From assembly GCA_015058955.1 (NCBI GenBank), contig SVBJ01000001.1, positions 62,001 to 126,000 on the forward strand: a stretch of DNA of 64,000 bases. The letters run 5' to 3'. A model generated the notes under the pieces. It worked only from the letters and a program-made list of their open reading frames with translations. It ran no database searches and was not told the DNA's origin. Positions within the stretch are counted from its first letter, which is position 1. Each line of letters begins with the position of its first letter. A program made the position numbers and the translations under genes. The stretch is from Erysipelotrichaceae bacterium. GTDB lineage: Bacteria > Bacillota_I > Bacilli_A > Erysipelotrichales > Erysipelotrichaceae. This document shows, piece by piece, positions 46,314-52,848 of the stretch.

Positions 46314-47712
46314 GAATCAGGAGATCTTTCAGACTCAGGATGAGTACACCGCCGGTTTCGCTGATGAAGATACCAGCGTATTCAATACGGGCAGGGGAAT
46401 CAGCCGTGAAGTCGTAGAAACCATTTCCCGCATAAAGGGAGAACCAGACTGGGTCCTGGAATACCGTCTGAAGGCCTTCGAGGCTTTTGAAAAGATGGCT
46501 GTTCAGGATTGGGGACCGGATCTCAGTGACCTAAACTTTGATGACTACATCTACTACATCAGACCGGCTGACCGCAAATCATCTTCCTGGGAAGATGTAC
46601 CGGAAACCATCAAGAATACCTTTGACAAGCTGGGCATTCCGGAAAGTGAAAAGAAATTCCTGGCCGGTGTTACCACCCAGTATGAATCTGAAGCTGTTTA
46701 TCACAACATGCTGGAAGAAGTCGTTGAAAAGGGTGTCATCTTCCTGGATACCGACAGTGCCATCAAGCTGTACCCTGATCTGGTAAAGGAATATCTGGGC
46801 AAGATCGTTCCTTACACCGATAACAAGTTTGCGGCTCTTAACAGTGCCGTATTCTCCGGGGGATCATTCATCTACGTACCTCCGGGAGTAACGCTGGATA
46901 AGCCATTACAGTCCTACTTCCGCATCAATTCGGAACAGATGGGACAGTTCGAAAGAACCCTGATAATCGTTGACAAGGGTGCCAACCTTCACTATGTGGA
47001 AGGCTGTACCGCCCCAATATATAAAAAAGACTCACTGCATGCCGCAGTAGTCGAGATCTATGTTCATGAAGATGCCAAGTGCCGTTACAGTACGGTTCAG
47101 AACTGGTCAACCAATGTTCTCAATCTGACGACCAAGCGTTCCATGGTCATGAAGAACGGTTTGATGGAATGGGTCGACGGCAACATCGGCTCTCACATAA
47201 CGATGAAGTATCCGGCCTGCATCCTCGCTGAAGAAGGTGCCAAGGGCATGACCATTACCATTGCGGTCGCCAGCAAAAATCAGATCCAGGATACCGGTGC
47301 CAAAATGATCCATCTGGCTCCGAATACCTCCAGTTCGATCATTTCCAAATCCATTGCCCGTAATGGGGGCTATGCCAACTTCCGTGACTGGATCCGCATC
47401 GGACCTAAGGCGGATGGAGCCAGAACCAAGATCGAATGCGATACTCTGATCCTGGACGGTATTTCCAAGACGGATACCATCCCGGCCAATACGGTGCAGA
47501 ATGATAACTGTACCCTGGAACACGAAGCCACAGTCTCCAAGATATCAGATGAAGAACTGTTCTATCTGATGTCCAGAGGACTTAATCAGCAGCAGGCAAC
47601 CCAGATGATCATCATGGGATTCCTTGAACCTTTTACCAAGGAACTGCCGGTTGAATATGCAGTTGAACTCAATCAGCTGCTCAAGATAGACATGGAAGGA
47701 GCCGTAGGATAA
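46300..47712 (+). CDS. sufB: Fe-S cluster assembly scaffold protein SufB
   Basis: SufB is the main scaffold on which the cluster forms. The 470-residue product has the family start, [28 protein letters not shown], and the C-terminal core [16 protein letters not shown] and [29 protein letters not shown] precedes the ATG at 46300, overlapping sufU by 14 bases; the ATG-less extension to 46288 is not needed. Confidence 0.97.
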
Positions 47713-48164
47713 TGAAATTAGCAGAAGCATTACAGAGAAGAGCTGACATAAACAGAGAAATCGATCAGCTAGAAAGCCGCATCAGCAATAACATGCTGGT
47801 ACAGGACGGTGAAAACCCGAATGAAAAGCCGTCAGATCTTTTCAATGAACTCAATAACAAGATGGATGAACTGGATGATCTGATCACCCGCATTAATCTG
47901 ACCAATGCCGTTGTCAAGGTAAACGGCAAGACTCTGACACAGCTGATTGCTGAAAAAGATGTCCTGACCAGAAAGATTGCGGTATATAAGACTGCCGTTT
48001 ACCAGGCTTCTCTGAATACCTCAAGAGCCAGAAATACGGAAATCAAGGTTCTTCCAACCATTAACGTTCAGTCTTTCCAGAAGGAAATTGACAGAATGAG
48101 CAGACAGCTGCGTGAAACCGACAATGCCATTCAGTCAACGAACTGGACTGCAGATTTAATCTAG
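47712..48164 (+). CDS. DIP1984-family protein
   Basis: This 150-residue soluble protein is helical with coiled-coil character (LAEALQRRADINREIDQLES, NKMDELDDLITRINLTNA, KTLTQLIAEKDVLTRKI). The pattern matches the small DIP1984 family of unknown function, as I recall it. The start codon shares one base with the sufB stop (TAATG), making it the sixth gene of the suf operon. A link to Fe-S assembly is only positional. Confidence 0.8.
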   Translation: MKLAEALQRRADINREIDQLESRISNNMLVQDGENPNEKPSDLFNELNNKMDELDDLITRINLTNAVVKVNGKTLTQLIAEKDVLTRKIAVYKTAVYQASLNTSRARNTEIKVLPTINVQSFQKEIDRMSRQLRETDNAIQSTNWTADLI

Positions 48165-48180
48165 TAAAATAAAGGACAGT

Positions 48181-48281
48181 AGTTAAAAGGGCGAGTGCGA
48201 TCTCTGCATATTGAGAATGAATATGCAACAGGAGGATCTGCCGAAGAGCAGGCAAGGGGTTCGAGTCCCTGTTTGACTGTT
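48181..48281 (+). ncRNA. Putative tRNA-like structured RNA or 5' leader, unassigned
   Basis: The ends AGTTAAA (48181-48187) and TTTGACT (48271-48277-side) can form a seven-pair acceptor-like stem with one G-U. Inside are GAG/CTC around TGCGAT, a strong eight-pair stem TGCATATT/AATATGCA with loop GAGAATG, CTGC/GCAG around CGAAGA, and a T-arm-like GGGG-TTCGAGT-CCC(T). The T-loop TTCGAGT is canonical. The anticodon-like loop has A, not T, before the triplet and no CCA follows, so it is not a normal tRNA. TAAAAT at 48165-48170 could be its -10. It lies upstream of a Cof-type HAD gene, so a riboswitch is an alternative. Confidence 0.45.
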
Positions 48282-48374
48282 AAGCTCCGACTGTTATAAA
48301 CGCATGCTTACTGTTATGTATTTATGACCCAGCACTGACTTTTAATGAGGATGCGGGAGAAGGGGATATTTTTT

Positions 48375-49178
48375 ATGAAAGCACAGTTAGTTGTGGCTGA
48401 CCTTGACGGCAGTCTTGTCATTACGGGTCAGCCGATATCACGAAATAATGTTAAGGCAATCGATTATCTTCATTCAAAAGGGATAAAGTTCGGAATTGCC
48501 ACAGGCCGAAATCTTTTTGACATCATGCGTCTGCCACGCAGATGGAAACTGGATTTTGACTTTGATTTCTATATTGGAATGAATGGTTCAGAAGTATATG
48601 ATACTGCTACGGGAGTCAGAATCGATTCATATAAGCTGGCACCGGAAGATCTGAAAGACATAATCATGAAAATGAAGCCTTTAGGTCTGAATCCGTTTAT
48701 TCTCTATAAAGACGGAATGATGATGAAACATGAAGATGCCGGAGCAAAATCTTCATCAAAGAGAAATGAGTTCAGGATTTACATTGCTCATGATGACAGT
48801 GAAATGTGGCAGGAAGAGAATGCCAAAATCATGTTCAGAGTAGAAGAGGAAAAATGCGATGAGATCTTCAAATATGCCAAGAGCATATCGAATGATCGTT
48901 ATAAGGCAGTAAGAACCCAGAAGACCATGATTGAGTTCGTACATCCCCTCATTGACAAAGCCAAGGGTCTGATTAATTACTGTGAGATGTATGACATTCC
49001 TCTGGATGAGGTAATTGCCTTTGGTGATACCACCAATGACAATGAAATGCTGGAATGCTGCTATGGTGTCTGCCTGGAAAACGGTACTGATGATACCAAG
49101 GCCATAGCCAGGGAAGTAACTGACAAGCCATGTGAAGAAGACGGGTTTGCAGACTGGATTTTCAAGAATATTGATTAG
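48375..49178 (+). CDS. Cof-type HAD-IIB phosphatase
   Basis: This 267-residue HAD hydrolase has motif I VADLDGSLVITG, motif II IATGRN, an HAD-IIB alpha/beta cap and motif IV VIAFGDTTNDNEMLECCYG. Relatives dephosphorylate sugar phosphates, pyridoxal phosphate or flavin precursors; the substrate is unknown. AGAAGGGG lies nine bases before the ATG at 48375; the ATG at 48345 would include that site. The 200-base leader holds the tRNA-like structure. Confidence 0.9.
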   Translation: MKAQLVVADLDGSLVITGQPISRNNVKAIDYLHSKGIKFGIATGRNLFDIMRLPRRWKLDFDFDFYIGMNGSEVYDTATGVRIDSYKLAPEDLKDIIMKMKPLGLNPFILYKDGMMMKHEDAGAKSSSKRNEFRIYIAHDDSEMWQEENAKIMFRVEEEKCDEIFKYAKSISNDRYKAVRTQKTMIEFVHPLIDKAKGLINYCEMYDIPLDEVIAFGDTTNDNEMLECCYGVCLENGTDDTKAIAREVTDKPCEEDGFADWIFKNID

Positions 49179-49200
49179 CTGTAGAAATACAGCTTTTTTT
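49177..49200 (+). terminator. Terminator of the Cof-type HAD gene
   Basis: AGCTGTA-GAAA-TACAGCT followed by six T, beginning within the stop codon. Confidence 0.92.
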
Positions 49201-50231: not shown

Positions 50232-50237
50232 TTAAAT

Positions 50238-50430
50238 AGCGTTGAACGGAATAGTAGGCGAAACATTGCTTGAAGAAAGCCGGTGGCTGATGCGAACCGG
50301 TACCTTGTCAGCTGAACTCACCCGGGAGCAGAACGTAACGGCCGCGTTAAGGCTGAAATGAGGGCATGCAATGGCATGAACTAAGGTGGTACCGCGCTGA
50401 GGCGTCCTTAGAGTAGCGCCTTTTATTTTT
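50238..50430 (+). promoter_or_regulatory. T-box riboswitch, leucine-specific
   Basis: The leader contains AGTAGGCGA, AGAAAGCCGG and GATGCGAACCGG of Stem I, a likely specifier CTC (Leu) at 50317-50319 in GAACTCACC, and the T-box AAGGTGGTACCGCG at 50383-50396. A hairpin AGGCG/CGCCT followed by TTTTATTTTT is the terminator alternative. Uncharged tRNA-Leu should stabilise the antiterminator and allow leuS transcription. Confidence 0.95.
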
Positions 50431-50448: not shown

Positions 50449-52848
50449 ATGAGTTACAATCATGAAGTTACAGAAAAGAAATGGCAGAAATACTGGGCAG
50501 AAAACAAGACATTCAAGACTGATGCCTGGGATTTCAGCAAGCCTAAATTCTATGCTCTGGACATGTTCCCGTACCCAAGCGGTGCCGGACTTCATGTCGG
50601 ACATCCGGAAGGCTATACGGCAACTGACGTAGTTTCCCGTAAGAAGAGAATGGAAGGGTACAATGTACTGCATCCAATGGGATTTGACTCCTTCGGCTTA
50701 CCGGCCGAACAGTATGCCATCAATACCGGCAATCATCCGGAAGGCTTTACCAAGGCTAATATTGAGATATTCAAGAATCAGCTGTACAATCTGGGCTTCT
50801 CCTATGACTGGGACAGAGAGGTTTCAACCTGTGACCCTTCTTACTACAAGTGGACGCAGTACATTTTCAAACTGCTGTTTGATGAGGGACTGGCCAAGTG
50901 CGTTGACATGCCTGTCAACTGGTGTGAGGAACTGGGAACGGTTCTGGCCAATGATGAAGTAATCGACGGCAAGAGTGAAAGAGGCGGGTTCCCGGTTGTC
51001 AGAAAGAACATGAAGCAGTGGGTAATTGACATCGTCAAGTACGCTGACCGTCTGCTGGAAGGCCTCGATGAGATCGACTGGCCGGAATCAACCAAGGAAA
51101 TGCAGCGTAACTGGATCGGCAGATCATATGGTGCCCATGTCAAATTCGCCATTGACGGTCATGATGAAACCTTTACGGTATTCACGACCAGAGCTGACAC
51201 CTTATTCGGTGCAACATACTGCGTCTTTGCTCCTGAACATGCCTTAGTGGAAAAGATCACTACTGATGAGTGCAGGGAAGCTGTTGAAGCCTATGTAAAG
51301 GCCTGCTCAACCAAGAGCGATCTGGAACGTACGGAACTCAATAAGGATAAGACCGGTGTCTTTACCGGTGCCTATGCCATCAATCCGGTCAACAACAAGA
51401 AGATCCCAATCTGGATCTCAGACTATGTTCTGGCCAGCTATGGAACCGGTGCCATCATGGCTGTTCCGGCTCATGACCAGAGAGACTATGAATTCGCCAA
51501 GAAGTTCGGACTGGAGATAATCCAGGTTCTGGAAGGCGGAGACATCAGCAAGGAAGCCCATGTGGAAGACGGTCTGCACATCAACAGCGAATTCCTGAAT
51601 GGCCTGAATAAGGAAGATGCCATCAATAAGATAATTGAGTGGCTGGAAGAAAGAGGAATCGGCCAGAAGAAGGTCAATTACCGTATCCGTGAATGGATCT
51701 TTGCCAGACAGAGATACTGGGGTGAACCTATTCCGGTCGTACACATGGAAGATGAAAGCCTGATCTCACTGCCACTGGATCAGCTGCCGTTAGTATTGCC
51801 TGAACTGGATGACTACAAGCCATCTGGTGGTGCTTCACCGCTGGAAAAGGCCACTGACTGGGTCAATGTTGAAATCAACGGCAAAAAGGGCAAAAGAGAA
51901 ACAAGCACGATGCCTGGTTCAGCCGGCAGCAGCTGGTATTTCTTAAGATACATCGATCCGCATAATGACAAGGCCATTGCTGACAGAAAGCTGCTGGAAC
52001 ACTGGATGCCTGTTGACCTGTATGTCGGCGGTCCTGAACATGCCGTAGGACATCTGTTATACAGCAGAATGTGGAATAACTTCCTGTATGACAAGGGAAT
52101 CGTTCCGGTCAAGGAACCTTTCCAGAAACTGGTACATCAGGGCATGATTCTGGGTGCCAACGGCATCAAGATGGGCAAGAGATATCCTCAGTACATCGTT
52201 GACCCTAACGACATTGTCAGACAGTACGGTGCCGATACCTTAAGGATCTATGAAATGTTTATGGGACCTCTGGAAGCCAGCAAACCATGGAGCGAGCAGG
52301 GTGTTGAAGGTGCCAGAAGATGGATCGAAAGAGTCTGGAGACTGGCCATGGAATCTGAAGGCAAGATCACTGATGAGCCGACACCTGAACTGGACTATGT
52401 CTATAACTACACTGTCAAGAAGGTCACTGAGGACATTGATTCCCTCAACTTCAATACGGCCATTTCCCAGATGATGATCTTCATCAATGAATGTTACCGT
52501 GTAGATAAGGTCAACAGAGACATGATGATCAGCTTCATCAAGCTGTTAAGCCCATATGCACCGCACATGTGCGAAGAGATCTATCACCACTATACCGGTG
52601 AAGACACGATCGCCTATGCAAAGTGGCCGACATATGATCCTGCCAAGCTGGTCAAGAATGACGTGGAAATCGTTGTTCAGGTCAACGGCAAGGTCAGAGG
52701 CAGAGTTTCCGCTGCCAAGGACTGCTCACAGGAAGATGTTCAGGATCAGGCCATGGCACTGGATACGGTAAAGGCTCAGCTGGCCGGCAAGACCATCAGA
52801 AAGGTGATCTTTGTCAAGAATAAGCTGCTTAACATCGTTGCCAATTAA
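50449..52848 (+). CDS. leuS: Leucyl-tRNA synthetase
   Basis: LeuRS charges tRNA-Leu. The 799-residue class-I enzyme has the HIGH-type motif HVGHPEG ([17 protein letters not shown]), the CP1 editing domain with [13 protein letters not shown] and [16 protein letters not shown], and the tRNA-binding C-terminal domain. The KMSKS loop reads [18 protein letters not shown], i.e. KMGKR, a departure from most LeuRS. GCAGGAGGAAGGTAT precedes the ATG. Regulation is by the upstream T-box. Confidence 0.97.

What the first reader, a model, noticed from the sequence alone, without database searches (positions are those of the whole stretch)
48181..48281. Cloverleaf-like RNA with a canonical T-arm that is not a standard tRNA
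A 7-pair acceptor-like stem closes the element. Inside are a short D-like hairpin, an unusually long 8-pair central arm with 7-base loop GAGAATG, a CTGC/GCAG arm and a T-arm with loop TTCGAGT. The central loop lacks U33 and there is no CCA. It sits between the suf operon and a HAD phosphatase gene, with a possible -10 just upstream. It could be a new tRNA mimic, a degenerate tRNA, or a riboswitch for the HAD gene.
Basis: partly seen in the sequence, partly recalled or inferred. Interest (0 to 1): 0.65.

Follow-up and report, generated by a model that had tools for sequence, protein, structure and literature searches.

The report
Conserved RNA partnered with DIP1984 protein

Summary
The window does hold a real RNA, but not the proposed cloverleaf. 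The conserved element runs ~48174-48365, nearly twice the length reported. It is closed by a long-range helix (48182-48189 with 48339-48346) and contains a pseudoknot. In 28 sequences, 30 of 34 proposed pairs show compensatory double changes: 197 cells against 59 in shuffles, none of 500 shuffles as high. The T-arm is real but optional: 18 of 39 relatives carry a canonical T-arm, 0.12 expected by chance. No Rfam family matches.

The RNA lies just downstream of the DIP1984/DUF6847 gene (47712-48164). In two surveys (58 and 117 genomes) exactly the same 12 genomes carry the protein and the RNA; the other 163 have neither above threshold. The pair also occurs in Actinomycetota, Cyanobacteriota, and Alpha- and Gammaproteobacteria. 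Flanking genes vary, which argues against a HAD riboswitch. In Acinetobacter the pair sits in an rtcR-linked RNA-repair operon, rbn-rtcB-X-DIP1984-RNA-rtcA.

Best explanation: a trans-acting RNA that forms a ribonucleoprotein with DIP1984. A role in tRNA or RNA repair, like Ro60/Y RNA, is a hypothesis.

The parts
47712..48164 (+). DIP1984 family protein gene (DUF6847, PF20935 / NF038048), constant partner of the RNA
   Evidence: Pfam E 9.8e-47, NCBIfam E 6.5e-51; directly upstream of the RNA in the relatives examined
48174..48365 (+). whole conserved structured RNA (ends approximate)
   Evidence: CM R1 148 bits; alignments A2-A4
48182..48189 (+). P1 5' strand GUUAAAAG
   Evidence: covarying long-range closing helix
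48190..48193 (+). GGCG of the internal loop GGCG/GA between P1 and P2
   Evidence: near-invariant; retained in most Actinomycetota, Cyanobacteriota and Acinetobacter hits
48194..48199 (+). P2 5' strand AGUGCG
   Evidence: 6 of 6 pairs with double changes in A4
48205..48227 (+). P3 hairpin UGCAUAU-[UGAGAAUGA]-AUAUGCA
   Evidence: stem covaries; loop invariant in the close set
48239..48254 (+). P4 hairpin UGCC-[GAAGAGCA]-GGCA
   Evidence: 5 of 5 pairs with double changes in A4
48246..48249 (+). pseudoknot 5' half GAGC in the P4 loop
   Evidence: GAGC/GCUC, GGGC/GCCC and related swaps; top non-model pair in the unbiased scan, counted
48256..48270 (+). P5, optional tRNA T-arm GGGG-[UUCGAGU]-CCCU
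   Evidence: 18 of 39 relatives, 0.12 expected by chance; stem covaries
48284..48287 (+). pseudoknot 3' half GCUC
48331..48336 (+). P2 3' strand AGCACU
48339..48346 (+). P1 3' strand CUUUUAAU
48347..48365 (+). conserved G-run tail (GAGG..GGG..GGGG); here it also looks like the Shine-Dalgarno of the HAD gene
   Evidence: G runs invariant or nearly so in A2/A3; start codon at 48375
48375..49178 (+). Cof-type HAD phosphatase gene, a downstream neighbour not conserved with the RNA
   Evidence: other downstream genes in relatives

Best explanation
48174-48365 is a structured noncoding RNA gene, or an RNA module released from the 3' part of the DIP1984 transcript. It is paired with the upstream DIP1984 (DUF6847) gene, and the two most likely form a ribonucleoprotein acting in trans. 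Shown here: conservation, fold with pseudoknot, optional T-arm, and strict co-occurrence and adjacency with DIP1984. Inferred: that DIP1984 binds the RNA. Hypothesis: the particle serves tRNA or RNA surveillance or repair, with the T-arm recruiting tRNA-binding or tRNA-modifying factors, much as Rsr/Y RNA may do in the Salmonella rsr-yrlBA-rtcBA operon. My estimates: conserved RNA gene or module 0.97; functional unit with DIP1984 0.85; tRNA/RNA-repair role 0.35.
For: Covariation: 30 of 34 pairs with double changes, 197 cells against 59 shuffled, no shuffle as high, slid controls at most 43 cells; seen already in the smaller alignment, with RNAalifold finding P1, P2, P3 and the pseudoknot helix on its own. 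Co-occurrence: the same 6 of 58 genomes in the window's family and the same 6 of 117 in another order carry both; two other genomes there gave marginal RNA hits at E 0.06-0.08. All 16 genomes found by RNA pattern and tested have DIP1984. DIP1984 loci of Streptantibioticus, Streptomyces, Mycobacterium, Mycolicibacterium, Picosynechococcus (two), Paracoccus, Psychrobacter and Acinetobacter (two) have the RNA right behind the gene, E 4e-4 to 2.5e-15. Flanking genes vary widely. T-arm enrichment. Repair-operon context in Acinetobacter: rtcR, then rbn-rtcB-X-DIP1984-[RNA]-rtcA.
Against: No transcript or binding data were available. The RNA could act only in cis as an mRNA 3' element. RtcB is absent from the window's genome and from 5 of 6 DIP1984-positive genomes of its family, no commoner than among negatives, so a repair role cannot depend on RtcB there. 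About half of the relatives lack the T-arm. The Enterococcus locus scores only 11 bits at the expected place.
Confidence: 0.8

Rival explanations
1. Cis element in the 3' UTR of the DIP1984 mRNA: DIP1984 binds its own 3' end to autoregulate, or the structure only stabilises the transcript.
For: Always on the same strand, close behind the DIP1984 stop; terminators follow in many relatives; no own promoter found in the window.
Against: ~190 nt with a pseudoknot, invariant loops and a canonical T-arm is far more than a stabiliser needs. In G315 an insertion separates gene and RNA by ~165 nt, yet both remain.
Confidence: 0.15
2. Riboswitch or other cis regulator of the downstream gene (here the HAD phosphatase).
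For: In the window the G-run tail doubles as the likely HAD Shine-Dalgarno.
Against: Downstream genes are unrelated in relatives: ApbE, RapZ, acetate kinase, MscS, Peptidase_M55, GMP synthase C-domain, integrase; in L057 the next ORF lies on the other strand, and terminators follow the RNA in many. The upstream gene is the constant one.
Confidence: 0.03
3. Degenerate tRNA or chance cloverleaf.
For: A canonical T-arm; isolated folding gives a cloverleaf-like stem.
Against: ARAGORN and Rfam negative; acceptor and CTGC arms unsupported; a different fold strongly supported.
Confidence: 0.01
4. A divergent branch of a described bacterial RNA family such as raiA/ModT or YrlA Y RNA.
For: Similar size, closing P1 helix and pseudoknots as in raiA; T-arm mimicry and rtc-operon position as in YrlA.
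Against: The raiA model RF03072 finds none of them, though it also rang in no control genome over its cut-off. No TROVE/Ro60 gene in the window's genome. Y RNA models were not available to test.
Confidence: 0.06

Closest known systems
Rsr (Ro60) with Y RNA / YrlA in the rsr-yrlBA-rtcBA operon
   Same: Protein plus noncoding RNA with a tRNA-like part; in Acinetobacter the DIP1984-RNA pair lies in an rtcR-linked rtcB/rtcA operon as Rsr and Y RNAs do in Salmonella (PMC7790460).
   Different: DIP1984 is a ~150-aa DUF6847 protein with no Pfam match to TROVE; the fold with P1-P5 and a pseudoknot is its own; T-arm optional; most hosts in the window's family lack RtcB.
raiA motif RNA / ModT (RF03072)
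   Same: ~200-nt structured RNA with pseudoknots, common in Bacillota and Actinomycetota (PMC11706538, PMC11751092).
   Different: No match to the raiA model; the constant neighbour is DIP1984.
tRNA
   Same: T-arm with UUCRANY loop.
   Different: No cloverleaf, no CCA, not called by ARAGORN or Rfam.
OLE RNA with OapA
   Same: A bacterial structured RNA that works with a dedicated protein (PMC11706538).
   Different: OLE is far larger (own knowledge), and no Rfam family matches here.

Membership tests
tRNA | cloverleaf with acceptor stem, detected by tRNA models | tested here: not met
tRNA | T-arm with T-loop UUCRANY | tested here: met
   window 48256-48270; 18 of 39 relatives
Any Rfam 15 family | score at or above a family's gathering threshold in the window or relatives | tested here: not met
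   at gathering; at permissive E-values gave no relevant match at the RNA
raiA / ModT (RF03072) | match to the raiA covariance model | tested here: not met
   no positive control rang over the cut-off, so the test is limited
Y RNA / YrlA | partner protein of the Ro60/TROVE family | tested here: not met
   no TROVE (PF05731) in the window's genome; the partner is DUF6847
Y RNA / YrlA | Y RNA stem with the Ro60-binding site | not testable with these tools
   no Y RNA model or sequence was compared
Riboswitch | conserved control of downstream genes with an expression platform | tested here: not met
   unrelated downstream genes; terminators or an opposite-strand ORF follow in many

The most novel reading that the evidence does not exclude
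A previously undescribed, widely distributed ribonucleoprotein, DIP1984 plus its own pseudoknotted RNA with an optional tRNA T-arm mimic, that serves in tRNA surveillance or RNA repair as an unrelated counterpart of the Ro60-Y RNA particle.
Probability: 0.35. Interest if true: 0.92.

Novelty: categorically new. Interest (0 to 1): 0.85.

Why it matters
If right, it gives the uncharacterised DIP1984/DUF6847 family (found in some 340 Acinetobacter plasmid records, sometimes annotated 'septicolysin') an RNA partner and a testable job, and adds a new structured RNA class, spread over several phyla, that borrows the tRNA T-arm. The Acinetobacter operon ties it to the open question of what the RtcB/RtcA repair system and its accompanying RNAs act on.

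Tried and rejected
Cloverleaf reading: rejected by pair counts. Rfam at gathering and permissive thresholds on the window, close relatives and distant relatives: nothing relevant. raiA model in the family and phylum samples: no match. Phage origin: no pattern match in 2.9 million viral contigs; the few 'phage' records with DIP1984 include Acinetobacter contigs carrying chromosomal genes. RtcB as a general companion: not associated in the window's family. Defence-system models: only insignificant hits. Solved structures: only 3kdq, an uncharacterised protein, is a clear relative. Literature: no paper in the held library on DIP1984 or DUF6847 function, or on RtcB with an Acinetobacter noncoding RNA. 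G-quadruplex or pairing of the G-run tail, and a further helix in 48290-48330, were considered by eye and left open.

Full report
WHAT IS THERE. A search of related genomes found the region in the same genus, downstream of the same gene, and then in another genus of the family.

A FAMILY OF RNAs. A pattern from the conserved core (GGCGANTNNNATCTCYG...TGAGAATGA) found 27 contigs in a collection of 84,980 species: Erysipelotrichaceae, Oscillospiraceae, Lachnospiraceae, Candidatus Pullichristensenella and other Bacillota MAGs, and none in viral contigs. The alignment of 17 sequences supports P1, P2, P3, P4, the optional P5 and a pseudoknot between the P4 loop and a downstream GYYC. RNAalifold found P1, P2, P3 and the pseudoknot helix by itself. 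Counts: 24 of 34 pairs with double changes, 88 cells against 29 in shuffles. In 28 sequences: 30 of 34 pairs, 197 cells against 59, no shuffle of 500 as high, slid controls 43 cells at most. That alignment was fitted to the model, which favours its nested helices, but the pseudoknot was not in the model and still came out as the best unmodelled covarying pair in an unbiased scan.

THE T-ARM. P5 is a genuine tRNA-type T-arm: loop UUCRANY closed by at least 4 pairs occurs in 18 of 39 distinct relatives, in Bacillota and Actinomycetota, against 0.12 expected in shuffled sequences. Its stem changes in a compensatory way (GGGG/CCCC, GGAG/CUCC, CUGG/CCAG, GAGG/CCUC) while the loop stays. Other relatives have a T-rich linker, and three (L058, L061, L062) have a hairpin with a different loop. 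A D-loop-like GGUAG precedes P1 in many relatives, but also in those without a T-arm, so I do not count it as evidence for a tRNA-like elbow.

THE PARTNER. The gene just upstream is DIP1984/DUF6847. With the same sampled genomes searched for the protein and for the RNA model: in the window's family 6 of 58 have each, the same six; in the order of G240, 6 of 117 have each, the same six. The chance of identical sets is about 2e-8 and 3e-10 if genomes are treated as independent, which related genomes are not. Sub-threshold protein hits (E about 1e-4) and two marginal RNA hits (E 0.06-0.08) in other genomes were set aside. In 11 of the 12 the RNA lies right behind the gene; in G315 overlapping contig ends place it ~165 nt further, behind an insertion. 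All 16 pattern-found genomes tested have DIP1984, and local tblastn puts it next to the RNA.

BEYOND BACILLOTA. DIP1984 genes from plasmid and phage records of Streptantibioticus, Streptomyces, Mycobacterium, Mycolicibacterium, two Picosynechococcus, Paracoccus, Psychrobacter and two Acinetobacter sources each have their best RNA-model match directly behind the gene (E 4e-4 to 2.5e-15). Enterococcus has only a weak match in the right place.

NOT A CIS SWITCH. Genes upstream of the pair (alpha-amylase, phosphoglycerate-mutase type, glycosyl hydrolase 3, rRNA adenine dimethylase, SufB) and downstream (ApbE, RapZ, acetate kinase, MscS, integrase, Schlafen AlbA_2, HAD) vary. Many members have an intrinsic terminator right after the G-run tail (tails printed, read by eye). 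In the window no promoter-like site is listed just upstream of the RNA, and a terminator-like site lies after the HAD gene at 49177-49194; the RNA may therefore be made from the longer transcript.

HOW IT MAY WORK. Two Acinetobacter contigs (filed as phage records but carrying chromosomal genes) show rbn-rtcB-X-DIP1984-[260-nt gap with the RNA]-rtcA, and the longer view shows rtcR next to it. In Salmonella that operon carries Rsr and Y RNAs, is switched on by tRNA fragments through RtcR, and YrlA has a tRNA-like domain (PMC7790460). By analogy I propose a DIP1984-RNA particle in tRNA/RNA surveillance or repair. This is inference: the window's genome has neither RtcB nor TROVE, so the particle would work without them there. 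Sporadic distribution and plasmid carriage suggest an accessory function.

LIMITS. No expression data. The library held no bioRxiv and few subscription papers, so an existing description cannot be excluded; one paper on RNA repair that I tried to open was not held.

Noticed in passing
window 50233-50412: T-box leader (102 bits) upstream of the leuS-like gene at 50449; expected biology.
   Followed up: no
window 48355-48374: The RNA's G-run tail is placed like a Shine-Dalgarno for the HAD gene starting at 48375, so the RNA end and the HAD ribosome site overlap in the window's nearest relatives.
   Followed up: partly
L138 and L112: Contigs filed as 'Acinetobacter phage MD-2021a' carry bacterial chromosomal genes (aroA, pepD, rtc operon), so they look like host contigs.
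   Followed up: partly
L112 1981-2478: Unnamed 166-aa protein X between rtcB and DIP1984 in the Acinetobacter repair operon; no Pfam or PADLOC match.
   Followed up: partly
L117 1-144 and L122 end: An insertion of ~165 nt separates DIP1984 from the RNA in G315 and breaks the assembly there.
   Followed up: partly
L107 and L144: Both Picosynechococcus plasmid loci have a VWA-domain gene and a MerR regulator upstream of the pair on the opposite strand.
   Followed up: no
L063 2013-2233: A contig labelled Paludibacteraceae (Bacteroidota) carries the pair but lacks the G-run tail; possible misbinning or a truncated form.
   Followed up: no
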